Shown: positions 40,560-62,116 of the stretch, in pieces | Layout of the letters: every line of letters begins with the position of its first letter | How positions within the stretch are numbered: the stretch's first letter is position 1 | Origin: Jacaranda mimosifolia | Taxonomy: Eukaryota; Streptophyta; Magnoliopsida; Lamiales; Bignoniaceae | NCBI GenBank assembly: GCA_018894105.1 | Contig: CM032119.1 | Span: 13,099,246-13,163,245 of the forward strand | Direction of reading: 5' to 3' | Length of the DNA stretch: 64,000 nt | Notes under the pieces: model-generated | The model's database searches: none | Told to the model about the DNA's origin: nothing | What the model saw: the letters and a program-made list of their open reading frames with translations, nothing else | Translations under genes and position numbers: made by a program

Positions 40560-43500
40560 CTTGAACAATCAAGTACAAAAACTAAAAAATCAGTATTTTT
40601 TCTTGGATTACAATATCATTCTTAGTATATAAAAGAAGTTGAATTTATCTTAATATGGCCATTGCAGCTATCAAATCATGGTTTATGAGTCTTAAGACAG
40701 ATATAGTAATGAGAAGTTCATTGGTTTTTATGGTGGCATCAAAAGAATACGTTTACCTCATACATCAATGATTTACACTAATATGAATAAGAACACAAGC
40801 GTATGGATGTGGTTATTTGTATTTTCAATCATTTACACACGTACTATCATGACCATTACATGATGAAAGCATTATTTTAGTGTATTAGAGGTCTTATGTG
40901 TTGTTTCACTCATCGGATAGAGATAAATTCGGCCAAAAGAAAATTAAGTACAAAAACATGCCAAGTAAGTACAAAACAATGAAAATTTAGTACATTAGAG
41001 ACTTATAGTACCATGCATGAATGGTTTCACACTAATATGATTGAAAGCGCAAGTGGTTGGATGTGGGTGTTTGAGCTCCCAACTATTTCATCACATACTA
41101 TCACTATCATTGCTTTAACAAACTATGAGTTCGCTGTGTTAGGGTATCTTATGTGTTATTCCAAGTATTGAATTGAACCTCATCTCAGCCTTTGAAAAAG
41201 CAAGTACAGAAATATGTATAATAAGTACACAAAATTGGCAAATTAAGTACATAAATGCAGTTTTGGAGTATATAAATGCCAATACTAGATACTTTTTTTG
41301 GATTTTCAGTATTATTCTCAGCACATAAGGGATTGAGTTCAATTCAACCTAATCTGGCCATTGCATGATCATAAGACAATAGCGTATTAGTCCTAGGACC
41401 ATATAGTTATGATAAGTTCAATAGTTTTCAATCGTGATGTAGAGAGGATTCATTTGGCCTAGGCATCAATAGTTTTAACTACTATGAATGAGAGAGCAAG
41501 TGGTTGGATGTGGGTGTTTGAGTTCCCAACCATTTCAATATGCACTATCATGATCATTTCTTCAACAAAATATGAATTTGTCGCGTTAGAGTATCTTCTG
41601 TGTTGTTCTGCGTATCGAATTGAGCCTAATCCCTACCTTTGAAAAAGTAAGTACATAAACACGCATAATAAATATACAACATTAGGCAATTAAGTACATA
41701 AATGCAATTCTTGAGTACACAAAAGCCAATACTGGGTACTTTTTCGCGAATTTTCGATATCATTCTCAACACATAAGGGATTGAGTTTAATTTGGCCTAA
41801 TCTAGTCATTGCATGATCTTAAGACCATGGTGTATCAGTCCTATGACTCATATAGTCATATAAGTTCATTGGTTTGCGATGGTGGTTTCGGGAGGATTTA
41901 TTTAGCTCATGCGTCAATGGTTTATACTATTATGAATGAGAGCGCAAGTAGTTGGATGTGGATGTTTGTGTTTCCAACCATTTTAACACGTACTATCACG
42001 ATTATTTTTTCAACAAACTATAATTTTGTCGTGTTAGGGTATCTTATATGTTGTTCCACATATCGAATTGAGCCTCATCTCGACCTTTGAAAAAGTAAGT
42101 ACAGAAACATGTATAATAAGTACACATTGGCAAATTAAGTGCATAAGTGCAATTCTAGAGTATATAAATGCCAATACTGGGTACTTTTTTGCGGATTTTC
42201 GGTATGATTCTTAACATATAAAGGATTGAGTTCAATTCAACCTGAATTGGCCATTATATGATCATAAGACCATGGCATATTAGTCCTAGGACTCATATAG
42301 TCATGATAAGTTCACTGATTTTTTATGTCGGTGTCGGGAGGATTCATTTGGCTTATACATCAATGGTTTATACTACTATAATTGAGAGCGCAAGTGGTTG
42401 GATGTGGGTGTCTGTGTTTCCAACCATTTCAACACATACTAGCATGATCATTTCTTCAACAAACTATAATTCAGCTGCGTTAAGGTTTCTTATGTGTTGT
42501 TTCACTTATCGAATTGAGCCTCATCTTGGCCTTTGAAAAAGCAAGTACATAAACATGTATAATAAGTACACAACATTGGTAATGTTGTAAATTAAGTACA
42601 CAAACGTAGTTTTGGAGTACATAAATGCCAATACTAGGTACTTTTTCATAGATTTTCGGTATCATTCTCAGCACATAAGGGATTGAGTGCAATTCGACCT
42701 AATTTGGACATTACATTATCATAAAACCATGGCGTATTATTCTTAGGGCCAAGTAGTCATGATAAGTTTGATAGTTTCGATGGTGGTGTTAGAAGGATCC
42801 ATTTAATTCGTGCATCAATAGTTTATATTACTGTGAATGAGAGCGCAAGTAGTTAGATGTGGGTGTTTGTATTCCAAACCATTTCAACACGCACTATCAC
42901 GATTATTTCTTCAACAAACTATGATTTTGCCACGTTAGGATATCTTATGTGTTGTTCCATGTATCGAATTGAGCCTCATCTCAGCTTTTGAAAAAGTAAG
43001 TACAGAAACATGTATAATAGGTTCACAACATCGGCAACTTTAGTACATAAACATAGTTCTGGAGTACATAAATGCCAATACTTGGTACTTTTTTGAGAAT
43101 TTTTAGTATCATTCCCTGCACATAAGGGATTGAGTTCAATTCAACCTAATTTGGCCATTGCATGATCATAAGACCATGCTGTATTAGTCATAAGACTCAT
43201 ATAGTCATGATAAGTTCACTGGTTTGTGATGGTGGTGTCGGAAGGATTCATTTGACTCATGCATCAATGGTTTATACTATTATGAATAAGAGCGCAAGTG
43301 GTTGGTTGTGGGTGTTTGTGTTCCCAACTATTTCAACATGTACTATCATGATCATTTCTTCAATAAACTATGATTTTGTCCCGTTAAGGTATTTTATTTA
43401 TTGTTCTACATATCGAGTTAAGCCTCATCTCAGCCTTTGAAAAAGCAAGTACATAAACATATATAATAAGTATGCAACAGTGGCAAATTAAGTACATAAT

Positions 43501-43720: not shown

Positions 43721-45127
43721 TTATATGTAGTTTCACTAGTAATTTGAGACAAATTAGGCATGAAACATTTAAGTGTAGAATCACTTTGATGAAGTATTAA
43801 ATACTGAAGATGGGGTGTTGTTCTTCTAAAATCAAGTATTCTGTTGCAAAAATGAAGTATTATTTTGCTGAAATTAGGTATTACGTTACTAACATAAGGT
43901 ATTATCTTTATGATAAAATAAAAAATACATTTGGACAATAGCTCCATCGTAAACCTTCCCAATAGCTAAAAATGATACTCATTCATGATTCCTTTCACAT
44001 TAAAACGATGGTACAATATGTCCATATCTTACAAAGTATACAACACAAATAATTATATAAAAATTCTCCAATTAAAATACAATATAATCCAAATACTTCA
44101 ACTTAACATGTTCTCCAAGCAAGGATGAATTTAGCAGCTATCATAAGCACGTGTACATGGTCTATTTCTAATCCATCTTCTTTTAAGTCTTTGTCTTCTT
44201 TGCATCCTCTTTTTTCCTAATTGAAGAGAAATAAAATCAATCAAGATATTATTTTATAAGTAATGAAAAATAGTAATGCAAGTACAAATATATAAAACGG
44301 TAAACAAATCCATCTTCATATCAATTTGCACTAAATGGTAAAAAAGTGACTTTTACTCAATAGAAGCACAACCTTACTTGCAAAGCATTGTATCAGTTTG
44401 CAATGTGTTCAATCATCTTGTTCTACACAAATAATTTATGTAAATCCAACTATGTAAATCCACAACACACAATTTATTATTATCAATCATCTCAAAACAC
44501 CTATAGCTACTAATGTGCAGGTTGAGTAGAAGTATTGAAGTATCAGAGTGGAAATACTAAATTGAACTAATCTGGTATTAATGAGTGAACTATTAAGTAT
44601 GATAATGTATAAATAAAGTATCTTATTAAGAAGAAAGAACATATAATAATTAGTTACTAATCAAAACACATCGGAAATATAACAAAGAATTGATGCAATA
44701 CTAACATGAAAATATGAAGAAACTTACCAATAAATATAATAAATTTTCCTTCCATATCTTTCCGGTTCATTTTTTTGGACAACCATCATATCAACATTGC
44801 CTATTTTAAGCAAAATATGCAATCAAATCATATTCAAAATGTCATTATTAGTTTCCAAAATGACATACGTCTTCTTATGTGGAGTGAAATATTGCAATTT
44901 ATTGAGCTCAGAACTAATTCTAGGTCATTTTTTCTCAATCTAAAACAATAACTCTATCAAACTCATACCTTCATAAATTGACAAAATATAGAGTTTCCTA
45001 TTGTACACACAACTTTCTAATAGCTAAGTTTTAGCATCTTGGCCACTCGAAGACATTTTTGTTAAGCTCAAACTCATGAAGTCTTACCTTTTTCCACATA
45101 ATGTTACACGATAAAGCAGCAATAAAT

Positions 45128-45330
45128 GGCTAAAGATCTTCCTAATGAACCAATTTGAGAATAGCGAAAAACAAAAAGAAAAAAAACGATCTTACCTGCT
45201 GTTCGCGAGAGAGAGCCGCAGTGATAAAGAGGCCAAGGATCTTCCCACTGAACCAATTTGAGAATGGCGAAAAAAAGGGGGAAAAATGATCCTACCTATT
45301 GTTTGCGGGAAAGAGCCGACGGGAGAGAAG
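45128..45330. repeat. Tandem duplication, about 103-bp period
   Basis: GATCTTCCTAATGAACCAAT near 45135 is repeated as GATCTTCCCACTGAACCAAT near 45238, with the following AGAATAGCGAAA / AGAATGGCGAAA and GATCYTACCT blocks. Confidence 0.85.
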
Positions 45331-45998
45331 AAAGAATGAAAGAGAAGGAATAATGTCAAATGAACAGAAAGAAAAAGAAGAAAAAATAAAGTTTTGAGGG
45401 ATTTTTTGGTCAAAACAAATGCATGGGTAGTCAACTCAAAACATAAAATTGAATTGGGGAATTGAAACTAAAAAAAAAAAAGGATGGATGGGAGTCTGAA
45501 CACAAAAGTGAAAGTGGGTTTGGGTATTTATAAATAAGATGCCCAATACCCAAAGCCATATTTGTCCCATTCTACTCATTTTTTTTTTTTTTTTTTTTTT
45601 TTTTGTCAAGTTGTCCTATTCTACTTCAATACAAGATTGACTTAATTGTTTTTTTTTTTTTTTTTAAATTCTGCTTCTAACCGTCAAATTTGTTTATTTT
45701 AATTTCCATGATTCAAAACAAACATATATATATATATATATATATACTAGTGAGGTGTGGTGCCTGTTTCACTACTTAAATAATTTAATTTTAAAAAATA
45801 ATAACCTAATTCTATACCTGATAAAAATTTATTTTTATATGGGTAGATTATATAATATTTTTTATGTTAAAACGTTTATTTTGAAATTAATTTTTAAAGA
45901 ATTAAATAAAGATAAGAGCAAATGAAAGTTTTATTTAATTTGATAGTTTTCCATTCTAACTTATTTAAAAACAGACACACAGAATATATTAAAAAGAA

Positions 45999-46162
45999 CT
46001 ATTGACATATTGACAAAGGAAACCCCAGTTTCAATAGCAATATGGTGATTGTCTTGACAGCTTTGCTCGGTGCATTGATATGTGCTCCTGGGCTAAACTC
46101 AACTTCCATTCCAAGAACTGTTTGCCTTGTTATCTTCTGATTAAACTTGAACAAGTAATCAC
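45999..46162 (-). pseudogene. Coding-like terminal exon fragment, unidentified
   Basis: After a putative acceptor (CTAAG/GTGAT) the minus strand stays open for 54 codons: DYLFKFNQKITRQTVLGMEV, then EFSPGAHINAPSKAVKTIT, to a TAG at 45999. Composition and the flanking acceptor look exon-like. I do not recognise the source gene. It lies downstream of and in the same orientation as the thylakoid protein exons, so it may be another captured fragment, or 3' sequence carried along with them. Confidence 0.45.
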
Positions 46163-46479
46163 CTTAGTTTCTGATTGCAATAGATTATGTAAGTTTGACT
46201 TAGTAAAATGAACTAAGATATAAGAATCCTGGATCAGAACTTGTATTTGCTAATACTAATGACGCCTCATATTTTACATAGGTATAATAGCTAAAAAAGA
46301 GAATAGATATAATAGCTTCAGCAATAATAATAAAGCCTTAATATCACGCCTCTGAATTGCTGTACAAAATCGTTTTTCTGACACCAATCGAGGTAAGAAG
46401 CATGGTGATTCCCTCAAAAAATTTCTTCTAAGGAACACCTGTAGTAGCTGTAGAGAAACATCTCAGTTTTGCAGAGATT

Positions 46480-47544
46480 TTATTTTACCTCCGAGCAATT
46501 ATTTGCACCCACTGTTTCTCTTAAGCAGGCTGAAATAGCCGTAACAGCAGCTTCAATAGATGCATCTTCTCCCTGCTTAATATAATGTCTTATCAGTATA
46601 ATTCTTGCAAATGAAAGTATTTCATGACACAATTACTAAAATGACCAAGAATTGTAACCTTTTCTTTCCAATAAAATATGTTCCCATATTTCCTTGCTAA
46701 TTGGCTCCAAAAGCTACGAGGGATGTCTAAATCCACTGAAGCCCCAATGTTGAAGTTCAGTATATTTCCTGATTACATACAGTGTATACATAACAGGTAA
46801 GTCGAGAATCTAGCTAGTTGAAGAAGAGAGCACTTATTTTACACCAATACCAAAGGTGAGATCAACAACAAATAAAATTGTATTATCATCTACTTACCAG
46901 AAATCTTTGATTGCTAACCCTGCAGAGAAAACAAAAGACAATCTCTTATTACATTCTTGACATCAAAAGGAATCAGAAAGTCGAACACACAGTAGCAGCC
47001 ATACCAGGCATATCAGGATAATTCTGAGCTAAAACTCTCAACTTATATCCTGTCTCCTTTTCTAGGGCAGCAATTTCCTGCGCAATTCTCTTCTCCTGCA
47101 GATCTAGGTTTTAAGTCTTATGATACTATCTTCAACTTGCATCTTTACCTGTATAATACTACATTGTATGATAGAATATGACACTTGATAGTACCGTATA
47201 ACCTGAAAAACAGGGTCTCTACGTGCAATAGTTTCATGTACGCTCTTCAGTAGAAAAGGGGAAGGCGTAACAAAGTTGATCAAGGATAAACTGTCCATTT
47301 GTTGATTATTCTTCAATGTTGTATAACAAGGACTCAAAATATCATCTTTAGATGCTGCTCAGGTGTAAGAGATTGCAGAATCTTCTCCAGTTACACCAAA
47401 TTTCTCAGACATTTTCATGTAACAATCAAGAACAACCAACCTGGCCGTCGGACAGGAATCCAGTAACATCAATTACAGTACTGAATTCTTTAGGCAGCAA
47501 TTCTGGCTTTTTCACCCCATCCTTTTCCTCAGCAAATCCCCCTC
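46480..47544 (-). pseudogene. Thylakoid lumenal 15.0 kDa protein 2 gene fragment (five exons)
   Basis: Five exons with GT/AG borders: 47544-47441, 47095-47005, 46919-46851, 46768-46659, 46572-46480. Joined, they read about 154 codons in one phase-consistent frame: GGFAEEKDGVKKPELLPKEF, VIDVTGFLSDGQ, EKRIAQEIAALEKETGYKL, LAIKDFW, IGASVDLDIPRSFWSQLA, GEDASIEAAVTAISACLRE. This matches my knowledge of the plant nuclear-encoded chloroplast lumen protein (Arabidopsis At5g52970 type), whose role is poorly defined. The transit-peptide exon is missing, so the piece begins at the mature region. One TAA in exon 3, right after DFW, probably from CAA, is the only stop before the terminal TAA at 46480. The first intron contains a foreign coding-like piece (47203-47437). 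It is interpreted as captured by a Helitron; a decayed native gene is less likely given its neighbours. Confidence 0.85.
47203..47437 (-). pseudogene. Coding-like fragment inside the first intron of the lumen-protein fragment
   Basis: The minus frame reads LDCYMKMSEKFGVTGEDSAI, a TGA, then KDDILSPCYTTLKNNQQMD, SLSLINFVTPSPFLLKSVHE and TIARRDPVFQ, followed by GTTATA, a plausible splice donor. Apart from the one TGA it is open for about 78 codons with a protein-like composition, unlike intron sequence. It starts almost at the exon border at 47441. The source protein is not recognised. It is best read as a separate captured exon. Confidence 0.5.
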
Positions 47545-47699
47545 CTACAAAGTTTAATCGTTGTCTTTATCATCCGCAATCTAATTAAAGTTAAAAATCC
47601 TACGCTGAGCTTGTTTAGGAGCATTTAGAATATCATAGCTCAGAATGAGTTAATTGAAGTTGTGAAAGCAAACACAGAGGGAAGAGTACTAACATGGGA

Positions 47700-48278
47700 T
47701 GCCAGAAGGATTCATCTGCAGGGGCAGAATTTAGAAATTTACATAAAAATGAGCAAGAAACAAGATCCTGCAGTTCCATTATGAGAGAAGTATAAAAGAT
47801 GTCAATAAATAACAACTTGAGAAAACAATATAGAATCACAAGTTTGTACATTCAAACAATAGGAAAATATAGGACAAATTTTGATACCTCATAAGAGAGA
47901 TTTGAGGATGTGAAAAAAACAATTCAGGAGGAATCTGACTGAAATCTCGGCCTCAATCCTCATAGGCAACTGTCTACTTTCAGTACTAAACCTGCCATTA
48001 TTGTTATTTTTGTCTATGACAATATCATCCTTTTTTGAAGGTGATAATGTGGTTTCAACTTCAGTTTCCATCTCAACAGATGACAAAGATGATGAGGACG
48101 ATGATCTTACTGCCCTCCTTAATCCTTCACCACTAATTTCACCCTCCTCTACTCTAATTTTCTTTACTTCCTGTTGTTCCTTCTCTTCCTGTTCACTTTG
48201 CTCACTCTCTTCAATGCGCAACCTCTTCCCATTTGTCTCTTCCTCCTTGGTCTCATCTTCCTCTTCAAGTGTCTCCAA
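47700..48278 (-). pseudogene. F-box protein SKIP31-type gene fragment (two exons)
   Basis: The exon 48278-47888 encodes an acidic N-terminal part (METLEEEDETKEEETNGKRL, then GEISGEGLRR and SSSSSSLSSVEMETEVETT), followed by PMRIEAEIS and the F-box start. The F-box motif QIPPEL is in another frame: a lost base puts it out of phase and an extra T in a T7 run restores FFHILK, after which two bases are missing. A GT donor (47887) and AG acceptor lead to exon 47767-47700, DLVSCSFLCKFLNSAPADES and FW, the next F-box helix. The match is to the plant SKIP31 family (SCF ubiquitin ligase substrate receptors). Everything after the F-box is absent and the homology ends near 47700. It is non-functional. 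Capture is inferred from its position between fragments of unrelated genes. Confidence 0.8.
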
Positions 48279-49237
48279 GTTTTACTGCAACACATTATTA
48301 TACAAGAGTTACCTGAACGGACCAACAGTTTGTATCGTAAAAAAGAAAATCTATAAATTTATGAAAGAATTGTGATTTATAATGAAGACAACGCAAAGAT
48401 CCAATTCTCGAAAAACAAAGCAAATAAGATTCACTTAATGCATACACAGATAGATATATAAATCGAACTTTAGGATTCAATATAGAAAATATCAGATAAG
48501 CTAAAACACACATAGTTGTCAGAAAAGAAAAACACTTCTAGAAAACATGATCCTAGTATACATAATAAATAGCTGAACAACCATGTATGCTAGATGAGAG
48601 TACATAACTTCTTGTGATGCCAGCATATATAGTTACAATAAAGTAAGATTAAGGAATTTTAATTTCAGACAATTTATATGTCCAATAAAACATATGCAAC
48701 ATCTCTTTGACTATTTTGCAGAAAATTAATCTTAAAAAAATGTATGCATCCAGGTTCACATCAAATTTTCAAATTTCATGCTGATGTATACTACAAATTT
48801 GATTTTTAGATGCATTAAAATAAATCTTAAGCCCAAAAATATGATCTTCACCTTTAGCACATCAATTCAGAGAAATATTAAAACAACAAAAAGGTCAAAC
48901 TTGAAAAAGGAAAAAGTGTAATTTCAACCCACCAAACCCATCATAATCCAACTAAATCAAACGACAATAAACATCTAAACATCCCCAAATAAAACACATA
49001 AAAATTTGCAAAACATATATCAGAAAGAAAAAAATCGCAAACAAATCCATATAAATTATAAGTCATATATACCTAATCGTAGAGTTCAAATAGAACTTCA
49101 GATTCGAGGAAATGGGCTAAGACCAAACGATCGACTGTTACATTCAAATACTATGGGAATCACACGCTAAAACACATCAATTTATATACACGAACCGGCA
49201 CAAATTATACAGACCCACATATTGGCACGCCCAAAAT

Positions 49238-49330
49238 AAGCTACGCACCCTATCTTCGCTTGTAATCCGAATTTCATTCTCATCAATCGGTGTCTCCACC
49301 TTTGGCTTCTCCACCTTCTCGTACCATCAT
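49238..49330 (-). pseudogene. Alba-domain protein (rpp25-like) gene fragment, first exon
   Basis: The minus strand reads Y-EKVEKPKVETPIDENEIRI, then TSEDRVRS, the highly conserved N-terminus of plant Alba proteins of the long (RGG-tailed, rpp25-like) class, which bind DNA or RNA. The ATG region near 49330 (ATGATGGTACGAG) has lost about two bases relative to the family, putting the start out of frame. Homology fades at about 49238 after VRS and no later Alba exon is seen. The pyrimidine-rich sequence at 49340-49640 upstream could be its 5' leader. It is a fragment, not a gene. Confidence 0.75.
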
Positions 49331-49826
49331 GCTCTATACAAAATCAATTTAAAAAAATCAGTAATCCACACAAAAATATAAGGATTGTCTTTGCAATAAT
49401 AATGATCCGCCGCTCCATTGCAGCCCGTAGCCCCTACCTTTTCTATGAAATCTAAGAATCCCCAACTTCCAGTCGCTCCTTTTCAAATCCTTTTTATGTC
49501 CAAATGAACCCGATGAAACCAAAACAGAAGGGGAAAAAAAAAAAGAAAAAAAAAAGGAAGAAGAGCAGCAGAAGCAGGTGGCTGCCTCGGTGGGGCACAA
49601 CGAACACAACAACAAAAGGGGAGGAAGAGGAAAGTCCAAAAGAAAGCCAAAAAAAAAGGAGAGAAAATGGGGTTCGCTGGTTCAAATGTTACTGTAGCAG
49701 AGGCGATTGCCTCTTATATAATAGTAGTAATATATAAACCCAATTCAAATACCGGTTTTTCTATTACAAATTTGCAATAGTAGCTACTCACCTCATTCAA
49801 TATAAGAGTTAACTGAAATTCTTACA

Positions 49827-50148
49827 GGGTGTTTGTTTATGTTTTTATTTTGTTTTATGTTATTTTTACTATTTGATAATAAATTTACAATAACTTATCA
49901 TCATTTTTACCAATATTCTAATTCATTTCCATTTCAAAATATATTTTCCAATAACTTATATATCTTCTCTCTCTTCTTCATTATTATTATCTCTCTCCAC
50001 CTGCAACCTAATAAACCATATATAATCATTACTTTTCCAACAAATTATCCAAATACAAATCTATTTTCAACTTATTTACTCTAACTAACTTTTTACATTT
50101 TAAAAATATATTATTTAAACAATGAAAATAAAAACATAACCAAGCTCC
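49827..50148. mobile_element. Probable MITE, 322 bp
   Basis: Ends GGGTGTTTGTTTATGTTTTT and, on the complement of the right end, GGAGCTTGGTTATGTTTTT are inverted repeats of roughly 20-30 bp around an AT-rich centre. The flanks TTCTTACA and TTGTTAGT are only partly alike, so the 8-bp duplication is uncertain. Confidence 0.5.
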
Positions 50149-51727
50149 TTGTTAGTAACTAGTGTCACTAATAACCACATAACCGATAAAAACACTCCGT
50201 CAACTCCAAAAGGGCAGTATTAAAAAATAATAAGAGAGGTTGTTCAAGCGGTGAAATTTAGGTTGCATATATAGAACCCTCAACTATATTATATTAAAAT
50301 TACTAAATTGTTAATTATATTTAAATAGTTTTGCCGTTGTCAATCTAAATATAGTAATAAAAAATCATGTAAAATGCTAAACCTTCAACGCCAATTACCT
50401 TAAATTCCACGGCAAAGAAAAAGGAGCAAAAATGGAAGCGCCAATAAAACTAGTAATACAAATGTTGTGCCAACAGAATAAACATTACAATATAAGAAAA
50501 ACAACACAAATTTAGATTTTATCAAATTCGACTAATTGTGGTTATAATTTTTATTTTGATTCTTTGATTATTTTCTTCAAAAAGAAAGATTTTGGACTTC
50601 ATAAATTTTGAATGGAAAATTCAGTTATGTGATTTTGATCGTTTACAATTTGATTGGTATTTATTTCTTCAATTATAGGATGTGATTTAAACTATCAAAA
50701 TATCAATATTTACTCATTTATTTTGCAAGATATGATTTGACTTGCCAAATTAGCATTCACTTCCTTAACTAGCAAGATATGATTTAAATTTATCAAAATA
50801 TTGAAATTTCACACTTTGTATCATTCGATTAACCAATAAAATATACACCAAAATATTAATTAGCTAATTATTTACTTTAGTAGAATTAAATTTAATTAAA
50901 ATTTTAAAACATAATATAAAATATAAAATTATTTTTTTATAAATATCATCATTTAATTCCAAGTGATTAACTGGCCAATATTGCATCATACTATCATGTA
51001 TAAATAACAGACGAATGGAAAAGATTCTTTCAATGTTTCGGATCCCAAACGTGCATGAAATATACCACTAAAGCTCAATACTATAGAGGAAAATAAATGA
51101 AGGACTTCATATACTAAGTTTGGAAAGGTATTTATAACTTCCCTTCCTCCCTCGGGACCTACTCCCAAACCTAGAGTAGCTAGATGGGGAAGTAAACTTA
51201 GTCCTTGTTCATACGTGGTAGGCTTCTCTAGTACGAAATAAGTCACTTCTAATAGGTTTATTGCTCCGGCTCAAAATATGATTATATATGAAGCTCGAAA
51301 TTCAAATCCTAACAAATTTTTTGCATCAGTGTATATGTAAATATAAATATAAATATACTTATATATATAATCATTTGATTGATCAAATATTTAATTTGTC
51401 TACAAATTAATATCTCAGGAAAAAAAGGCTCTGACGGTAGAAAAAACAATAATCAAGCTTTTTAAATGCAGTGCTTATCTATACTTTCATATTTACTAGT
51501 AGATTCTACTCTTGATCTTTATACTCTATACCGACAAAGTGGTTTCGACCAAATCCTAGTAGCTTTTCAAAACCAAAAAAAAGGGGGGGAGGGGGGAAAT
51601 GTGCAACTTTGCACAGTTGCATAAATGCAAATTGACCAATAGATGGTATGTAAATAGGGGAGTTCTAGCATCAGTCACCTATATAGGTAACTAATGTTAG
51701 TCATATTTTAAAATTGTGACAAGTGTA
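50149..51727. other. AT-rich intergenic sequence
   Basis: No domain recognised. A minus frame at 50986-51246 (86 codons) lies in a slightly GC-richer patch with no family resemblance. A purine run (A8, G7) occurs near 51574-51596. Confidence 0.45.
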
Positions 51728-52306
51728 TGTTGGAAATATATATGTGCACCAGTGTATGTATCAAATAGGCAATAACAAAACGAAAGCATAAAAAATTAAC
51801 ATATGACATGTATCATCACAATCAAAAACTAAAAAAACAGAAACTTGAGAAAACAAACTAGGAACAATGATTATATTAGAACTTTGATTGAGTCGAGGCC
51901 TGCACAGACACAACTTCCTTAAGGTTTTATCCACCTCCCAATGGTGCACGAGAACTCCTAACAAACAACCTCCCAAGACAAAACGACGCGGCCAGACAAA
52001 GGCTGCATTCTAATTGCCCGGACTCCAAATCATTAACAGGCATGTTACGGGTTGTAATTAAAGGTTATAACCTTTAATTTTAAATCTTGAGGACATAGCT
52101 ATAGAATTCAAACGAAAAGACATAGCTGCAAGTATTTGAACTTTTCGGACATGACCATTAGGAGAGTAATATTTGGAATTTTCGGACATAACAATTAGGA
52201 GAAGTTGGTCTCAAAATTGAAATCAAAAATAATTATAGAACATAATTATTAATGATAAATAAATAAATAAATAATATTTTATTTATTTCAAAATTGATGG
52301 AAATTA
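51728..52306 (-). repeat. Copia LTR fragment, minus strand (type 2)
   Basis: Starts TGTTGGAAATATATATGTG. It is the reverse complement of 62622-63301, the second half of the plus-strand 3' LTR, including the YGCTTTCATTTTGTTA, CTTGGGAGGTTGT and AATAATTATGTTCTATA blocks. The LTR's own start is missing. Confidence 0.85.
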
Positions 52307-53151
52307 GTATAAGTCCATGTTGATATATAATTTAGTGGCATAAAACAAAAAGCATTTAATAACATATAAAATGAACTTAAACAAGTATTAAATGTAAAGT
52401 ATATTAACAAATTATACAATTTATCAAAGCAACCGAAATTTAAAACTTAGAAAAGGATAACGAACCTAAAGCGGCATAAGTTAATTTGATTATAAAGAAA
52501 TGAGTCGAGGCCTGTACGGATACAATTTCTTTAAAGTCTTATCTGCCTCCCATTGGTGCTCGAGGACTGCTGACGGACGACCTCCCAAGATAGAACGACT
52601 CATGAGCAGTCTAAGGCGGCACTCCTATAGACTAATCCTCCAAACTGAACTAACTTGAACATCTATGTTTAATGAAAATGTATATGTATGAATGTGAGAA
52701 TAAATGCTTAGAATGCTGGAGTGCTAGAATGCTTGTATGTATTTTCTAATGAAATGACACTAGACAGCATCTCTATTTATAGGACTTAAGTGCCTATTAT
52801 TATAAGACATGTCCCTAACTCTGTCAAACTAAATAAAGGTTGTGACCTTTATTTTGAATTTCAAAAGACATCGGTTGCAACTCTCTAAGAAATTAGACAC
52901 GACTATTGGAAGAATTAAATTCGGTCTCAAAACTCAAAATTTAAAAATAATCCTAATAATAATTATATAGAATAATTATTATTATTATTTTTGGATTATT
53001 ATTATACATTATCCACCCACTCCCATGTCTTAATATAATTTTAGCTCATAGCTTGCATATTAACTTAATTTTCTCATTCAATACTACATTAATTTTGGTA
53101 TTAAAATATCTCCACAACAAGATAAATTGTTTAAATGCTAAAATTCTAACA
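52307..53151 (-). repeat. Copia LTR, minus strand (type 1)
   Basis: On the minus strand it starts TGTTAGAATTTTAGC directly after the polypurine tract GTGGGGGAT (53152-53160) and is the reverse-complement relative of 55348-56178. Contains a CTATAAATAGAGATGC promoter box near 52778. Confidence 0.85.
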
Positions 53152-53755
53152 ATCCCCCACATGAATGAGAAAATAGTCTAACATATATGTTCATGAATGC
53201 AATTACATGATAGAGGTTCAGCTCAAGTGATATTGCATCGGGAGAGGTAGCTTTTGGCTTTGAACCTTCCATAGTGAGCACTATCGGATGTACTTGCCAA
53301 CCAATGAACATGATGTCTTGAACTGTTCAGCTTTTGTGTACACCAAGACAATAGCATTGCACACAACACCACTCAATAGTCAATTTTTATGGTTTAATTG
53401 TTGTGTTCATTTTGGCCGAAACAATTCTTGGTATTCATGAGTACTACTTCGAGAATCCAGCCTTAAAATTCTCATAGGATCGGCCCAATCCCTACTGATA
53501 TAGGTGACTTCTCATTAAGAGGTTCCTACTGCACCCCCATTCGAAATATCAAGATATGAGAGCTATTAAAAGCAACAATTAGCCTAGAACTTTAGTAGGA
53601 TGCATTGTCTCCTCATCAATGGAATGGGCTAGAGGGTTGTGGCCCCCCATAATACTTCTACGTCAAGTCACAGTTGCATAACTTGTTTTTCCCTTTGAAC
53701 CTACTTCATGGGATCTCCAATCACATACGTAGGGTTCCCATTGTGGTGACTCATT
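53152..53755 (-). other. Inverted copia 3' non-coding tail
   Basis: Reverse complement of the region between RNase H and the 3' LTR in the plus-strand element (compare 60712-61260 and 61515-62115). It ends at about 53755, inside the GAGTCACCATAATGGG stretch, where the sequence switches to plus-strand protease-region sequence. Confidence 0.85.
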
Positions 53756-54643
53756 ATTTAGAGGCCACTACTATGTTTGTAGCAAACTAGGGCATAAGGC
53801 TAAAGACTGCCAAAACCATCAACAAGGAGGAACTCCCAAAAAGGGCGGGTCTTCAAATAAGAGAAATACTGCCTATGCCAATGTTACAAAAGTGGATAAT
53901 CATCTGTCAGATGGTGTTAGTGACTTGAACTTATCAGCCGTAGTTTCTGAGGTGAACCTAACTGAAAAACCCAAACAATAGTGGGTAGATACCAGGGCCA
54001 CTCGACATGTGTGCTCAGGCAAAAGCTTGTTCACAACCTATGAGGATGCAAAGGATGAGAACTTGTTCATGGGAAACTCATCAACTTCCAAGGTGCATTG
54101 AATTGGTAAAGTGGTGCTTAAGATAACTTCTGGGAAAGAGCTGACTCTCAACAATATGCTTCATGTGCCAGATATATGAAGAAACTTAGTGTCAGGTTCC
54201 ATGCTTAGCAAGAATAGCTTTAGACTAGTTTTTGAATCCGACAAATTTGTACTAACAAAAAATGGTGTGTATGTCGGAAAAGGATATTTATGTGATGGTC
54301 TTTTTAAAATGAATGTAATGACCATCATACCTAAAAATGTACCAAAAGTTGTTTTTAATGGAAATAAAGTAAATTCGGCTGACTTGTTGGGGTCTTTAGA
54401 TTTATGGCATCATAGACCAGGGCATGTAAATTTCGATACTTTAAGTAAACTAGCTAAAAGTGGAATTCTACCTAAGTTGAATTTTGACACAAAAAATAAG
54501 TGTGAAATTTGCATTGAGGCAAAAATGACAAAAACTCCTTTTAAGGCAACAGAAAGATGCACTGAACCATTAACTTTAATTCACACAGATATCTGTGACT
54601 TAAAAATGGTACAATCAAGAGATGGGAAAAAATATTTTATTAC
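53756..54643 (+). pseudogene. Partial copia gag-pol copy: zinc knuckle to integrase start
   Basis: Reads YYVCSKLGHKAKDC (zinc knuckle with its first cysteine replaced by tyrosine), then the protease start VDTRATRHVC, where the catalytic DTGA is changed to DTRA. An open frame from 54189 carries the GAG-pre-integrase domain (LWHHRPGHVNF, CEICIEAKMTKTPF) and the integrase start HTDICDLK. Homology stops at about 54643 in ITL, where the sister copy reads ITFIDDC. Stops at KPKQ* and KVH* are shared with the copy at 57735. The pieces would belong to one Ty1-copia polyprotein; none is functional. Confidence 0.9.
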
Positions 54644-55347
54644 CTTAAGATTGTTAGAGAAATTTAACAAAGATACCGTGTATGCTTGTGCTTTGTGAAA
54701 ATATATAAAATTAAAATATATAACCATATAAAATTATGTAACACGAGATAATTTTTAAAGAAAGCAACATAAACCTACTTGAATGCGAAACAAAAATTGT
54801 ACTAGCCAAGGCATGTTGCTCCAACAGTCTCCTTAAGATAATGTTGCCCCTCACACGATGGTAGAAGGCTCCTGGAAATTAACCTCCCAAGATACAACGG
54901 CTCTCCTCAGGTCTAAGGTAGCACTCTAATAGAACAGAACTATCGAACTTTACTAACTTAGAACTCTTCTTCAATGGATAGTGTATAAGTGTGTAATATA
55001 GTGAGACAGACTACTAGTATGTATGCTTTTTTTTCCCAGTGATTTGGGTTAGTTATAGGCACTCCTATTTATAGCTGTGCAATGTAATTTTGCTGACGAG
55101 ACATGATTCTTCATTATAATCATAATTCTTTCTTTTAAGAACACAACTATAGGATAAAATCCCATAACTTTACTCTTTTAATGAATAACTACAGCTTCAC
55201 TAAAGAGTTAGGATCTCAAGTCATAGCTCTAGTTTTTGAGCTAACTATTCTATAGGGGTATGGCTATCAAAATATATTAAAAAAAATTCTAATTATTTTA
55301 TTTACACACACACACCCTTTTTCCCAACGCAGGTAGAACCCACTAAA
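54644..55347 (-). repeat. Diverged copia-type LTR fragment, minus strand
   Basis: Contains AACCTCCCAAGATACAACGG and TCTAAGGTAGCACTC, the complement of the conserved leader block of the neighbouring LTRs, and a minus-strand GCTATAAATAGGAGTGCC promoter box near 55070. It is clearly more diverged than the other LTRs here. The ends are not defined. Confidence 0.65.
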
Positions 55348-56178
55348 TGTTATAATTTTAGCACCTAAATAATTTATCTCGTTGAGGAGATATTTTAGCG
55401 CCAAAATTAATGTAGTATTGAATGAGCAAATTGAGTTAAAAAGTGAGCTATGTGCTAAAACTATATTAAGACACAGGAGTAGGTGGATAGTGTATAATAA
55501 TAATCCAGAAATAATTATTATTATTATTATTCTATATAAGTATTATTATGATTACTTTAAATTTTAGGTTTTGAGACCGAATTTAATTATTCCAATAGTC
55601 ATGTCTAATTTCTTAAAAAGATGCAAACTGTGTCTTTTGAAATTTAAAATAAATGTCACAATATTTATTTAGTCTGACAGAGTTAAAGACATGTCTTATA
55701 GGAATAGGCACTTAAGTCCTACAAATAGAGGTGTTGTCTAGTGTCATTTCAATAAGAAAAGTCATACAAGCATTCTAGTACTCTAGATTCCTAAGCATTC
55801 ATTCTCACATATATACATACACACTTTCATTAAACATAGAGATTCAAGTCAATTCGATTTGGAGGTTCAGTCTATAGGAGTGCCACCTTAGACTGCTCGT
55901 GAGTCGTTGTATCTTGGGAGGTTGTTCGTTAATAGTCCTCAGGCACCAGTGGGAGGTAAATAAAACCTTAAGGAAACTGTGCTCGTGGAGGCCTCAACTC
56001 ACTATTTATTTTATCCTCAATTAATTGCTTACGGTTTGAATTCTTAACTAATTATTTACTTACTTGTTAGTTGTTTTCAATTATTTCTCCTATATTTAGT
56101 CAGTTTTATGCTAGTTGGTAGTGTTAAATTTATGCCAGTGTTATATGATAAATTTTGGTGTATACAATTATTCCAATA
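55348..56178 (+). repeat. 5' LTR of the copia element (type 1)
   Basis: Starts TGTTATAATTTTAGCACC and ends near TATTCCAATA. Aligns with the minus LTR 52307-53151, including the GGTTTTGAGACCGAATTTAA, CTACAAATAGAGGTG and CTTGGGAGGTTG blocks. No clear initiator-Met PBS follows. Confidence 0.8.
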
Positions 56179-56721
56179 AGCTTAAGGTTGTATTCTCTAG
56201 TCTCTATATAATTCAGTAGCAATATAGAAATAACAACTTGAAATTATTTGCTTCAAAACTTACAAAAGGTTGCCTAGCATTGTTTGACGTGCATGCTCAA
56301 TTTTGGTAAGATATTAGTACTCATGCCTACGTGTTCTGCGTCATAAGTCCACTTAGACTTTGGTTGTAATTAAGAAAAAAGATCTTGCCTTCATTATTCC
56401 AACACAAAATGATGCTACATTTCAAGTAAATGCTACATTAGAGAGCCTACTGGTTCCGTTAACTATAGAAAAATAGGTTGGTCTTTAAATTCTCTATATG
56501 CCTGGTTGATTGTAATTAATTCTGGAAAAGATTTTGTGTTTTACTACATTAATTTAACTTCTTGATAATAATCTGTATGGTCCTATTTATTGCTTGATCA
56601 GTGCCATAATTCTTCCTATTGAAATACAATATGTTATAATATTCTATCATTTTGTATACATTACTTCTGTCCAAATCTAAGAGAGATAATTTTCCTCATA
56701 ATTGTTTTATAGAAATTAATT
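56179..56721 (+). other. Leader of the copia element
   Basis: Non-coding sequence between the 5' LTR and the gag start. No PBS of the TGGTATCAGAGC type was seen, so it is either mutated or lies elsewhere. Confidence 0.5.
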
Positions 56722-57620
56722 ATGGCTTCAAACAACAATGTGCCAAATGTTCCTGATGAGCCCAACGTGACTAACGTTGGTAATGGAACACCAAATGCTC
56801 TCGTTGGGCCGCCTCCAATTGTCGCTGCTCCTACTTCTGCTATAGTTGGACAAGTGGAGAAACTAGAAAAATTCAATGGAAAAGATTTAAAGATATGGCA
56901 ACAAAAAATGCTATTTTATCTCACCATCTTGAACCTTACAAAGTTCTTACGGGAAGAATGTCCTGCATCAGGGGAAAATCCAGATATGCAGACCGTAGCG
57001 GCTGTCGATGCATGGAATCATGAAGATTTCTTATGCAAAAACTATATATTTAATGGGTTGGATAATGCACTATACAATGTCTATAGTCCCATTGCTACGG
57101 CCAAAGAACTTTGGGAATCACTTGAGAAAAAATATAAGATGGAGGATGTCGGCAAGAAGAAATTCATCGCTAGTAAGTTTCTTGAGTTTATTATGACTGA
57201 CTCAAAGTTTGTGATGTCCCAGGTTAATGATTATCAGATGATATTGCATGAGTTGACTGCCGAAGAGATGACATTTGGAGAATCATTTCAAGTGGCAGCA
57301 CTCATTGAAAAAAATACCCCTAGGGTGGAAGGACTTCAAAAACTACCTCAAGCACAAATGCAAGGAGATGAACCTTGAGGACTTGATCTTGAGGCTGAGA
57401 ATAGAGGAAGATAACAGACTTCCTAAAAAGTGCTGGCAATGCTTATAAGAGCGAAGCAAATATTGTGGAGCAGAGTCCTTCTAACAAACAGAAAAGAAAT
57501 GCTTCTAACCACCAGAATGACAAAACGAAGAAAAAGAAATTTGAGGGAAGCCAGGCCATAGGGCAAAGGACTGCAGACACCGTTAGCAAGTAGAAACTCC
57601 AAGGAAAAAAGGGTTTTCAA
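56722..57620 (+). pseudogene. gag: Copia gag (UBN2 family), frameshifted
   Basis: Opens MASNNNVPNVPDEPN and holds the UBN2-type gag core: KFNGKDLKIWQQKMLFYL, LYNVYSPIATAKELWESLEK and ESFQVAALIEK. The frame is intact to about 57330 (218 codons to the TGA at 57376). There a one-base shift moves the continuation into another frame (WKDFKNYLKHKCKEMNLEDL). The zinc knuckle keeps only its second half (GHRAKDCRHR near 57553), the CxxC half having been deleted. A TAG and further stops follow. In a living element this protein forms the particle; here it could give at most a truncated capsid. Confidence 0.9.
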
Positions 57621-58320
57621 GGAAGAAGAAAGTTGCTCATGCAAACATAGCTGAAGTGGAAAATCTCTCAAATGACCTTAATGACTTGAACCTTTCTGCA
57701 GTGGTTTCTGAGGTAAACCTAACTGAAAAACCCAAACAATAGCAGGTGGATATCGGGGCCACTCGACATGTGTGCTCAGACAAAAGTTTGTTCATAACCT
57801 GTGAGGATGCAAAGGATGAGAACTTGTTCATGGGAAACTCGTCAACTTCCAAGGTGCATTGAATTGGTAAAGTGGTGCTTAAGATAACTTCTGGGAAGAG
57901 CTGACTCTCAACAATGTGCTTCATGTACCAGATATAAGAAAAAACTTAGTGTCAGGTTCCATGCTTAGCAAGAATGGCTTTAGATTAGTTTTTGAATCCA
58001 ACAAATTTGTACTAACAAAAAATGGTGTGTATGTTGGAAAAAGGATATTTATGTGATGGTCTTTTTAAAATGAATGTAATGACCATCAAACCTAAAAATG
58101 TACCAAAAGTTGTTTTTAATGGTAATAAAGTAAATTCGGCTGACTTGTTGGAGTCTTTAGATTTCTGGCATCATAGACTAGTGCATGTAAATTTTAATGC
58201 TTTAAGTAAACTAGCTAAAAGTGGAATTCTACCTAAGTTGGATTTTGACACAAAAAATAAGTGTGACATTTGCATTGAGGCAAAAATGACAAAAAACTCT
58301 TTTTAAGGCAATAGAAAGAA
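57621..58320 (+). pseudogene. Copia protease and GAG-pre-integrase domain, degraded
   Basis: Protease begins after KPKQ* with VDIGATRHVCSDKSLF; the catalytic D-T-G-A is D-I-G-A here. KVH* interrupts it, and a missing base at GGGAAGAGC shifts the frame. From 58022 an open frame covers the pre-integrase domain: [33 protein letters not shown] and CDICIEAKMTK, the zinc-binding HHCC-like region. It ends in a frameshift at AAAAAACTC near 58299. A second, partial copy of this segment lies at 53756-54643. Confidence 0.9.
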
Positions 58321-58329
58321 GTACTGAAC

Positions 58330-59060
58330 CATTAACTTTAATTTTCACAGATATATGTGACTTAAAAATGGTGCAATCAAGAGGTGGAAAAAAAATTTAT
58401 AACTTTCATAGATGATTGCATAAGACCTTGTCATGTTTATCTACTTTCAAGCAAAGATGAAGCTGTTGAAGTATTTAAACATTACAATAATGAGGTTGAG
58501 AATCAACTTGGAAAAAAAATAAAAATACTTAGAAGTGATAGAGGTGGTGAATATGTTCACCCCTTTGAAGAATTTTATGTTGAACATGGAATAATTCATG
58601 AAGTAACAGCACATTATGCACCACAATCAAATGGTACTACTGAACGCAAAAATTGAACTTTAATAGAAATGATGAATGCATTAGTTATTAATGTAGATGC
58701 ACCTCAAACATGTGGAGAGAGGCAGTATTAACTGTGAATCATTTACTTAACAAGATACCCTACAAAAAATTACAAAAAACGCCATATGAGACTTGGAAAG
58801 GACATCTCCCATCTTATCAATATCTTCGAGTGTGGGGGTGTGTAGCTAAAGTAGGAGTACCAACTCCTAAAATGGTCAAAATAGGACCACGGACTGTTGA
58901 CGGAATCTTTATTGGCTACGCACAATGTAGTGTAGCCTATCGGTTCCTTGTACATAAATATGATATTGATGGCATCCAAGTCAACATGATAATCAAGTCA
59001 AGGAACGCAAGCTTCTTTGAAGAAATATTTCCATGGAAAAAGGAAGAAGGATGAGTAATA
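58330..59060 (+). pseudogene. Copia integrase, degraded
   Basis: Catalytic-core residues are spread over frames: the first aspartate in FTDICDLK (58350), then after an A-run frameshift FITFIDDC (58389), ILRSDRGGEY with the second aspartate, and NGTTERKN with the glutamate, followed by a TGA where the family has arginine. After another shift 58710-59054 reads WREAVLTVNHLLNKIPYKKL and the C-terminal part (GCVAKVGVP, KIGPRTVDGIFIGYA). All three DDE residues survive, but four or more lesions prevent translation. Confidence 0.9.
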
Positions 59061-59199
59061 TTTAAAAGACTTCCAGAATTCAAGAGTCGAGTAAAAAGGA
59101 TATTGGGCCGAGACATATTAAACGAGCTAGAATGGCTAAATCCTTTGGACCCAACTTCTTGACTTATATATTAGAAAGTGAACCACGGACATTTACTGA

Positions 59200-60060
59200 A
59201 GCTATGACCACCCCAGAAGCTTCTTTATGGAAAGAAGCAATAAATAGTGAAATAGAGTCCATCATGCATAATCATACTTAGGAACTAGTAGATTTACCTC
59301 ATAAAAATAAACCCTCAGGGTGTAAATGGATTTTCAAGAGAAAAATGAAAGTTGATGGTACGATAGACAAGTACAAGGCCAAGCTAGTAGTCAAAGGGTA
59401 CCGACAGAAAGAAGGTCTTAACTACTTTGATACGTTCTCGCCGGTGACTAGAATAACTTCTATTCGATTATTAATTTCCTTTGTTGCTATTAATAATACA
59501 CCAAACTGATGTAAAGATGGCATTTTTAAATGGTGACCTCAATGAGGAAATTTATATGGAACAACCTGAAGGGTTTGTGGTTCCAAGCTAAGAGAATAAT
59601 GTGTGTAAATTAATTAAATCGTTATATGGTTTAAAACAAGCACCTAAACAATGGCATCTTAATTTTGATCATATGATGATAGCCAAAGGCTTCAAGATTA
59701 ATGAGTGTGACAAGTGTGTCTATATTAGAGGTACACCAACTGAATATGTCATTGTATGTTTATACGTAAATGATATGTTAATCATGGGAAGCAACAGTGA
59801 CATAATCAAAGAGATAAAGAAATTGCTAAGTCATAATTTTGATATGAAAGATATGGGCCTTGCTGATGTCATACTTAAAATTAAAATTATAAGAACACCT
59901 GATGGGATAGCATTAACACAATCTCACTACATTGAAAAAGTGTTACAAAAGTTTCTAGATCCCATTAGCAGCGCTGTGAAAACACCAATAGATGTAAACC
60001 AACAGCTTACCAAAAATAAAGATGAAGGAAATGCTCAAGTAGAGTACGCACGCATAATTG
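59200..60060 (+). pseudogene. Copia reverse transcriptase (RVT_2), degraded
   Basis: Reads WKEAINSEIESIMHNHT, a stop, then LVDLPHKNKPSGCKWIFKRK and the RT fingers/palm KYKAKLVVKGYRQKEG. After a frame change come TDVKMAFLNGDLNEEIYMEQ (first catalytic aspartate kept) and, after a TAA, an open frame from 59601 with [18 protein letters not shown]. The catalytic YVDD motif reads CLYVNDMLI near 59764, so one of the two paired aspartates has become asparagine by a single G-to-A change. This would abolish polymerase activity even without the other lesions. Confidence 0.92.
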
Positions 60061-60715
60061 GAAGCCTCATGTATATAATGAATTGCACGGAGCCAGATAT
60101 TACATATGCAGTTGGTAAGCTAAGTAGATATACAAGAAACCCTGGACAAGAGCATTGGAATGCTATTGTCATTGAACTAAAGTACTTCAAACACACCATG
60201 AAGTATGGGTTGCACTATACTAAATATCCAGTTGCAATTGAGGGATACAACGATGCCAATTGGATATCTGACTCAAATGAGTCCAAGTCCACGAGTGGAT
60301 ATGTGTTCACTCTAGGTGGAGCTACCATATCGTGGAAATCCTCGAAGTAAACTTGCATAGCTAGATCAACGATGGAATCGGAGTTCATCGCGTTAGATAA
60401 AGTAGGGGAGAAAGCCAAATAGTTATGCTAATTTTGGAAGATATTCCAAATTGAACGAAGCCTATGTCAGCAATTTCATCCACTCTAATATCCAATCTTC
60501 CATTGGCAAGGCACAAAATAGTATGTACAATGGTAAGTCTCAACACATATGGAGGAGATAAAATACCGTTAAACAACTGCTCTCTAGTAGAGTTATCTCA
60601 ATCAACTACGTGAAGTCTAAAGATAACCTTGCGGATCTGCTAACTAAAGGTGTAAATAAAGAGCAAGTAAATAAATCATCAAAGGAAATGGGACGGAAGC
60701 CTTTAACTAACTGAG
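60061..60715 (+). pseudogene. Copia RNase H, degraded (first copy of its end)
   Basis: Continues the RT frame: [40 protein letters not shown], then [16 protein letters not shown] and a TAA where the family has glutamine (CAA to TAA). TCIARSTMESEFIALDK follows in frame with more stops. The C-terminal part (NYVKSKDNLADLLTKGVNKE) is present at 60600-60670. The tail from 60461 on is tandemly duplicated downstream. Confidence 0.9.
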
Positions 60716-62065
60716 TCACCATAATGGGAACCCTACCTATATGATTGGAGATCCCATGAAGTAGGTTCAAAGGGAAAAACAAGTTATGTAACTGTGACTC
60801 GACGTGGAAGCACTGTGGGGGGCCACAACCTCTAGCCTATTCCATTGATGAATAGACAGTGCACCCTGCAAAAGTTCTAAGTTAAGCATTGCTTTTAATG
60901 GTTCTCATATCTCGATATTTCGAGTAGGGGTGTAGTAGGAACCTCTTAATAAGAAGTTACCTATGTGAGTAGGGATTGGGCTGATCCTATGAGAATTTTT
61001 AAGGCTGAATTCTCAAAGTAGTACTCATGAGTACCAAGAATTGTTTAGGGCCAAAATGAACACAACAGTTAAATCATAAAATTGACTATTGAGTGGTGTT
61101 GTGTGCAGTACTATTATCTTAGTGTACACAAAAGCCGAACAGTTCAAGGCATCATGTTCACTGGTTGGCAAGTGCATCCGATAGTACTCACCAAGGAAGG
61201 TTTAAAGCCAAAAGCTACCTCTCCTGATACAGTATCACTTGAGCTGAACCTATGTCATGTAAAGCCTGTGCCAGCAATTTGCATTCACTGTGATAGCTAA
61301 TCAGCCATAGGAAGGGCACAAAATAGTATGTATAATGATAAGTCTCGTCACATACGAAGGAGACATAATACCATTAGACAACTGCTCTCTAGTGGTGTTA
61401 TCTCAATTAACTACGTGAAGTCTAAAGATAACCTTGTGGATCCGCTAACTAAAGGTGTAAATAGAGAGCAAGTAAATAGATTATTGAAGGGAATGGAACT
61501 GAAGCCTTTAAATAACTGAGTCACCATAACGGGAACCCTACCTATGTGATTGGAGATCCCATGAAGTAGGTTCAAAGGGAAAAACAAGTTATGCAACTGT
61601 GACTCGACGTAGAAGCATTGTGGGGGGCCTTAACCCCTTAACCCATTCCGTTGATAAGCAGGCGGTGCATCCTGCAAAATTCTAGGTTAAGCGTTGCTTT
61701 TAATAGCTCTCATATCGCGATATTTTGAGTGACGGTGCAACAGGAACCTCTTAATGAGAAGTCACCAATATGAGTAGGGATAGGGTCAATCCTATGATAA
61801 TTTTAATGCTGGATTCTCAGAGTAGTACTCATGAATACCAAGAATTGTTCAGGACCGAAATGAACACAACATGAACCACAAAAGCTGACTATTTAGTGGT
61901 ATTGTGTGTAGTTCTATTGTCTTGGTGTACATAAAAGTCAAACAGTTCAATACACCATGTTTACTGGTTGGCGAGTGCACTCGATAGTTCTCACTAGGGA
62001 AGGTTCAAAGCCAAAAGCGACCTCTTTTGATGCAATATCATTTGAGCTGATCCTCTGTCATTTCA
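60461..62065 (+). repeat. Tandem duplication (about 804 bp) of the RNase H end and 3' tail
   Basis: Copy 1 (60461-61260) and copy 2 (61265-62065) are similar throughout: CCTRTGYCAGCAATTT starts, AACTGCTCTCTAGTRG, the end of pol, GAGTCACCATAAYGGGAACC and GAGCTGAWCCT. The 9-bp CCTATGTCA is found at 60461-60469 and again at the junction, 61249-61257. Copy 2 keeps an open RNase H tail (61328-61516). Confidence 0.92.
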
Positions 62066-62107
62066 TTACATTCATAAGTATGCCTATCAAATAAATTGCT
62101 CATTCAT

Positions 62108-62116
62108 GTGGGGGAT
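62108..62116 (+). other. Polypurine tract of the copia element
   Basis: GTGGGGGAT immediately before the LTR start TGTGAGAATTTTGGC. The same tract precedes the minus-strand LTR at 53152-53160. Confidence 0.8.

What the first reader, a model, noticed from the sequence alone, without database searches (positions are those of the whole stretch)
45747..49740. Helitron-like element carrying fragments of at least three host genes in one orientation
Within 4 kb the minus strand runs Alba exon 1, SKIP31-type F-box exons 1-2, then five exons of thylakoid lumenal 15.0 kDa protein 2, with a CTAG-T terminus downstream. These genes are unrelated and normally unlinked, and introns are kept, which points to DNA-level capture. 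This is the best candidate here for new transcript formation: a read-through RNA would join nucleic-acid-binding, ubiquitin-ligase and chloroplast coding pieces.
Basis: partly seen in the sequence, partly recalled or inferred. Interest (0 to 1): 0.88.

Follow-up and report, generated by a model that had tools for sequence, protein, structure and literature searches.

The report
Dead mosaic of three plant genes
Intron-bearing pieces of three unrelated plant genes lie head to tail in one 3-kilobase stretch and are broken by stops and frameshifts, so this is likely an ordinary gene-capture relic, and a Helitron transposon as its carrier is not proven here.

Summary
The gene fragments are real. 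On the minus strand run Alba exon 1, SKIP31 exon 1 (tail), 2 and 3, and thylakoid lumenal 15.0 kDa protein 2 (TL15) exons 2-6, introns kept. Protein searches confirm all three parents. By locus tags the parents lie on three chromosomes in Buddleja, and on three in Erythranthe (two species pooled). The pieces are similarly decayed (11/98, 5/41, 2/23 invariant residues changed), which fits one event but proves little. Coding is dead: three stops, four apparent frame changes, and the SKIP31-to-TL15 join is out of frame. The Helitron label is weak: CTAG|T is there, but CTRR-T occurs 488 times in the window; hairpins as good occur at 40% (short loops) or 9% (6-bp stem, longer loops) of those sites; no A|TC start lies at 49740. 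A Tourist-like MITE adjoins the 5' side. The host-genome search did not complete (11 calls), so the host's parents, other copies and empty sites are untested. Verdict: a composite gene-capture pseudogene, carrier likely but not shown to be a Helitron; new member of a known kind, low interest.

The parts
49331..49790 (-). Probable Alba 5' UTR and core promoter (inferred); the upstream limit is unknown
   Evidence: GC is 0.32-0.45 at 49300-49799 against 0.19-0.24 at 49800-50099; TATATAA at 49720 on the minus strand. No parent DNA was available to confirm it.
49249..49330 (-). Alba (RGG-type DNA/RNA-binding protein) coding exon 1, about 28 codons, 2 bp shorter than expected just after the ATG (frameshift); GT donor present
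   Evidence: 85% identity in 26 of 31 hits; 24 of 31 hits begin MDRYQKVEKPKVETPIDENEIRITSQGR.
49073..49121 (-). SKIP31 exon 1, tail only (from about codon 10); last codon now TAG; GT donor present
   Evidence: LAHFLESEVLFELYD* against LAHFLESEVLSELSDQ of Paulownia P0121.
47888..48284 (-). SKIP31 exon 2 (acidic region and start of the F-box); first codon now TAA; three apparent frame changes in its last part
47694..47767 (-). SKIP31 exon 3 (rest of the F-box); AG and GT present, ends in phase 2
   Evidence: F-box E 9e-8, above the Pfam cut-off, for the joined exon 2-3 piece with X at the shifts; below cut-off for the exon 3 ORF alone.
47441..47544 (-). TL15 (thylakoid lumenal 15.0 kDa protein 2) exon 2
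47005..47095 (-). TL15 exon 3
46851..46919 (-). TL15 exon 4, with one in-frame stop (TAA) after FW
46659..46768 (-). TL15 exon 5
46480..46572 (-). TL15 exon 6, to the native stop
46000..46479 (-). Probable TL15 3' UTR and downstream DNA (inferred)
   Evidence: GC is 0.41 at 46000-46099 and 0.20 at 45900-45999. A peptide read at 46160-46023 gave no hit of its own.
45747..45750 (-). CTAG followed by T: the proposed Helitron 3' end; background-frequency motif

Best explanation
This is a dead composite pseudogene: intron-bearing pieces of Alba, SKIP31 and TL15 lie head to tail on one strand, likely copied there in one event by a Helitron-type rolling-circle transposon whose ends are not proven here. 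Shown: identity, order, strand, kept introns, disabled coding, and parents that are not neighbours in the relatives whose tags could be read. Inferred: a single event (similar decay), the Helitron as carrier (CTAG|T with an AT-rich 3' flank, no inverted-repeat ends or target-site duplication found), an age of roughly 4-7 million years, and capture of the Alba promoter and the TL15 3' end. If transcribed, it would most likely give a non-coding, partly spliced RNA.
For: TL15, SKIP31 and Alba homology. Eight of 8 donors are GT and 7 of 7 acceptors AG at the borders I placed, so copying was from DNA or unspliced sequence. Parents: Bualt11G0108400, Bualt05G0035100 and Bualt01G0021500 in Buddleja; chromosomes 12 and 03 (E. 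guttata) and 01 (E. nasuta) in Erythranthe (names). Decay of the three pieces does not differ, chi-square p 0.91, with small numbers. CTAG|T followed by (TA)n lies 730 bp past the TL15 stop. PMC2575219 (section 6 read; passages) gives 5' TCT and 3' CTAGT as shared by maize and rice Helitrons, with a preferred 5' flanking A and an A+T-rich 3' flank (less pronounced in maize), and reports 16 of 35 maize elements with weak 3' hairpins, so a weak hairpin does not exclude one.
Against: CTRR-T occurs about once per 262 bases per strand, and another lies at 46237 on the same strand past the TL15 stop. The hairpins are not rare among such sites. No A|TC start at 49740; 30 A|TC sites lie in 49300-51750 on that strand, 8 of them TCT, all 8 beyond 50500, and none could be picked out. 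No second copy of the 30-bp 3' end in the window: the best other place matches 19 of 30. A Rep/helicase gene was not searched for. Similar decay cannot separate one event from several close in time. Splice borders were placed by me on GT/AG without parent DNA, so their intactness is partly by choice.
Confidence: 0.5

Rival explanations
1. Double-strand-break repair with template switching (synthesis-dependent strand annealing, gap filling) copied three ectopic gene pieces into one site with no transposon carrying them.
For: No proven transposon borders. Gene-bearing filler during repair that can accompany transposon insertion is described for wheat in PMC3445842 (passages); gap filling and template switching are described for animal transposon duplications in PMC8277862 (passages).
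Against: The maize filler DNAs quoted in PMC2686159 (passages) are 1-131 bp and come from nearby; here the exons alone span 2.9 kb and the parents lie on different chromosomes in Buddleja, all in one orientation (chance 1 in 4).
Confidence: 0.25
2. A Pack-MULE or other Pack-TIR element with eroded terminal inverted repeats.
For: Host gene pieces with introns in such elements are well known (recalled; PMC13317346, passages, gives over 3,000 Pack-MULEs in rice). A 38-nt AT-rich inverted match links 45767-45804 with 50090-50127.
Against: The right arm of that match lies inside the MITE at 49825-50151, which has its own inverted repeats and TTA duplication. The other flank-to-flank inverted matches listed (top 25, ungapped, 45450-46500 against 48900-51750) are T-rich or TA-rich simple sequence.
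Confidence: 0.13
3. Three separate insertions at different times happened to land together in one orientation.
For: Each piece has its own boundaries; nothing seen here excludes it outright.
Against: Similar decay in all three pieces, and coding pieces of neighbouring donors only 127 and 149 bp apart.
Confidence: 0.08
4. A local duplicate of a real three-gene neighbourhood.
For: TL15 and SKIP31 share a contig length, hence probably a chromosome, in four genomes read by eye (Salvia hispanica, Cichorium, Taraxacum, Ancistrocladus), and SKIP31 and Alba do in Perilla.
Against: Different chromosomes in Buddleja and Erythranthe; the smallest locus-tag gap I could read for such a pair was 831 (Taraxacum); the Alba/SKIP31 junction falls after Alba exon 1 and inside SKIP31 exon 1, and the SKIP31/TL15 junction between exons, not between whole genes.
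Confidence: 0.03

Closest known systems
Maize gene-fragment-carrying Helitrons (e.g. Hel1-331, -332, -333)
   Same: Captured gene pieces in one element with spliced and read-through transcripts (PMC4528327, passages); CTAGT at the 3' side is typical of maize and rice elements (PMC2575219).
   Different: Here no 5' terminus found, no unusual hairpin, no second copy seen and no transcript evidence.
Pack-MULEs of rice
   Same: DNA-level capture of host gene pieces (PMC13317346, passages).
   Different: No terminal inverted repeats found around this cluster.
Tgm-Express CACTA elements of soybean
   Same: Host gene fragments in one element with new exon combinations (PMC1947982, title and abstract start in a search listing only).
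   Different: No convincing inverted-repeat pair found around this cluster.
Repair-associated gene insertions in wheat
   Same: Displaced genes or fragments used as filler during repair (PMC3445842, passages).
   Different: This mosaic joins three donors in one orientation; the maize filler cases quoted are far shorter (PMC2686159, passages).

Membership tests
Helitron | 3' end CTRR followed by T | tested here: inconclusive
   CTAG|T at 45750-45746 on the minus strand, but CTRRT occurs 488 times in the window.
Helitron | 3' palindrome of 16-20 bp near the end (often present) | tested here: not met
   Short-loop hairpin score 10 in the 35 nt upstream, reached by 40% of 488 CTRRT sites; a 6-bp stem overlapping the CTAG, a length reached at 43 of 488. 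PMC2575219 reports many maize Helitrons with weak ones, so this is not decisive.
Helitron | 5' TC (TCT) preceded by A | tested here: not met
   None at the proposed end 49740; the nearest A|TC are 49706 and 49876, neither TCT. A start further out (8 A|TCT sites beyond 50500) is not excluded.
Helitron | Other copies with the same ends, or an empty A|T site | not testable with these tools
   The genome search did not answer in 11 tries; in the window the best other match to the 3' 30 bp is 19 of 30.
Helitron | Rep/helicase relationship | not tested
   Not searched for; not expected inside a non-autonomous element (recalled). A Rep_N match in a Copia reverse-transcriptase ORF (E 0.0038, below cut-off) is taken as chance.
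Pack-MULE / Pack-TIR | Terminal inverted repeats around the fragments | tested here: not met
   Ungapped flank-to-flank scan gave T-rich and TA-rich runs and one AT-rich 38-nt match explained by the MITE.
Pack-MULE / Pack-TIR | Target-site duplication | tested here: inconclusive
   The direct flank matches listed are A/T-rich simple sequence; borders are unknown.
Processed retropseudogene | Introns lost | tested here: not met
   Introns are kept between all adjoining exons of SKIP31 and TL15, with GT and AG at the placed borders.
Transduplicated composite pseudogene | Fragments of unlinked genes joined, introns kept, coding disabled | tested here: met
   locus tags of relatives. The host's own parents were not seen.

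The most novel reading that the evidence does not exclude
The mosaic is laid out like a gene: promoter and first exon from Alba, middle exons from SKIP31, last exons and 3' end from TL15, with every placed splice site intact and the Alba-to-SKIP31 join in frame by phase. It may be transcribed as one spliced three-gene RNA that acts, as RNA or as a small-RNA source, on all three parent genes at once.
Probability: 0.06. Interest if true: 0.6.

Novelty: new member of a known kind. Interest (0 to 1): 0.2.

Why it matters
If transcribed, it would be one more natural case of exon shuffling by DNA capture, in what is probably a Lamiales plant; a search of the held library for 'Helitron', 'gene fragments' and 'Lamiales' together found no paper. 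As it stands it is a useful warning that CTAG|T alone does not make a Helitron.

Tried and rejected
Terminal inverted repeats between the flanks: T-rich and TA-rich runs, plus one AT-rich match that falls in the MITE. A fourth gene piece: the peptide at 46160-46023, and pieces of the stretch about 47405-47196 inside a TL15 intron, were put in the same query as the Alba exon; 31 of 31 hits were Alba proteins. Four of those rows show 55% coverage; the one checked (P0206) is the Alba start plus a gapped extension that I take as spurious. Alba exon 1 alone gave nothing in Pfam or the PDB. TL15 does not pin it either: the 13th hit, an Acacia, is 83% identical. Selection on splice sites: the chance that all 30 bases stay intact at the estimated neutral decay is 0.21, so intactness says nothing for function. 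Rfam at gathering scores: 0 matches in the window. Pfam on 9 other window ORFs: 2 of 9 hit, both retrotransposon domains. Paper searches combining the gene names with 'chimeric', or Paulownia fortunei with genome and Helitron, found nothing.

Counts dropped: 4 of 31 Alba rows beginning MEQY were left out of the invariant-column count. SKIP31 decay is 8/44 with the three columns holding X and 5/41 without; the latter was used. TL15 used 20 of the 120 listed hits, SKIP31 17 of 85, chosen as Lamiales; the order was looked up only for Paulownia and Buddleja and is recalled for the others.

Full report
What is there. Reading the minus strand of 49850-45650 in three frames and placing exon borders by motif gives nine coding pieces in one orientation: Alba exon 1 (49330-49249), SKIP31 exon 1 tail (49121-49073), exon 2 (48284-47888), exon 3 (47767-47694), and TL15 exons 2-6 (47544-47441, 47095-47005, 46919-46851, 46768-46659, 46572-46480). 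Eight of 8 donors are GT and 7 of 7 acceptors AG; I placed these borders on GT/AG where the reading continues into the next exon of the protein relatives, without parent DNA.

Identity. The TL15 read-through matches 661 proteins at E 1e-3 or better among 684 candidates; the first 12 of the 120 listed are Lamiales at 83-87% identity (orders mostly recalled; Buddleja looked up), but the 13th, an Acacia, is also 83%. It also scores above the Pfam cut-off for the TPM domain (E 3.5e-7). The SKIP31 piece has 85 hits, best Paulownia fortunei (a Lamiales) at 75%, and a joined F-box piece scores above both Pfam cut-offs (E 9e-8). The Alba exon finds Alba proteins in 31 of 31 hits, 26 of them at 85%, with modest E-values because the exon has only about 27 residues.

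Linkage of parents, read by eye from truncated names and contig lengths. Buddleja: TL15 on chromosome 11, SKIP31 on 5, Alba on 1. Erythranthe: TL15 on 12 and Alba on 03 in E. guttata, SKIP31 on 01 in E. nasuta. Against full independence: TL15 and SKIP31 share a contig length in Salvia hispanica, Cichorium, Taraxacum and Ancistrocladus, and SKIP31 and Alba do in Perilla, but the closest tag numbers I could read for such a pair were 831 apart. The host's own parents were not seen.

State of the coding. SKIP31 has TAG and TAA at the exon 1/2 border and three apparent frame changes in the F-box part; TL15 has one TAA; Alba is 2 bp short after its ATG. In the predicted spliced chimera (Alba e1, SKIP31 e2-e3, TL15 e2-e6; 1020 nt) the longest ATG frame has 60 codons. 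By phase, Alba e1 to SKIP31 e2 would be in frame (0 to 0), but SKIP31 e3 ends in phase 2 and TL15 e2 needs phase 1, so a full three-gene protein could not have been read even before decay, if the parents' phases are as here.

Age and unity. At residues invariant in relatives the pieces differ at 11 of 98 (TL15, 20 relatives), 5 of 41 (SKIP31, 17 relatives, X columns dropped; 8 of 44 with them) and 2 of 23 (Alba, 27 rows); chi-square p 0.91. Leave-one-out controls differ at 0-6 of 98-104 (TL15) and 0-4 of 44-48 (SKIP31). About 0.05 changes per nonsynonymous site gives 3.9-7.2 million years at 1.3e-8 (rate used in PMC2575219) to 7e-9 (recalled). The numbers are small; they fit one event but do not prove it.

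Carrier. CTAG|T stands at 45750 with a (TA)n flank, 730 bp past the TL15 stop. CTRRT has 488 sites and CTAGT 120 on the two strands of the window, and another CTRRT lies at 46237 on the same strand after the stop. The short-loop hairpin upstream is ordinary (40% of sites as good); the 6-bp TAGTGA/TCACTA pair overlapping the CTAG is one of 43 of 488 sites with a stem of 6 or more. The proposed 5' end 49740 has no A|TC; 30 A|TC sites lie in 49300-51750. GC steps at about 46000 and 49800 mark the gene-derived DNA. Just upstream sits a MITE, 49825-50151, with TTA duplications and inverted repeats (31-nt arms, 84% complementary), a Tourist-like layout (label recalled). PMC2575219 (section 6 read; passages) shows that weak hairpins are common in maize Helitrons, so a Helitron remains the most likely carrier, but membership is not shown.

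Verdict. A composite gene-capture pseudogene of a well-known kind in plants (PMC13317346 and PMC4528327, passages).

Noticed in passing
49825-50151 (TTA at 49822-49824 and 50152-50154): Tourist-like MITE (label recalled) with about 27-bp terminal inverted repeats and a TTA target-site duplication, next to the Alba 5' side.
   Followed up: yes
41012-43499: Array of 5.5 copies of a 447-bp unit, 80% matches, with single further copies of a 53-nt piece on either side.
   Followed up: no
6945-9046 and 17165-19563: Several direct repeats spaced 10.1-10.5 kb, 83-94% alike; possibly the two LTRs of an old element or a duplicated one.
   Followed up: no
51728-63301: Copia-type retrotransposon pieces (gag, GAG-pre-integrase, SH3-like and RVT_2 domains) with large inverted and direct repeat pairs, suggesting nested copies.
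   Followed up: partly
45115-45330: A stretch of about 105 bp appears twice in tandem with differences, seen by eye.
   Followed up: no
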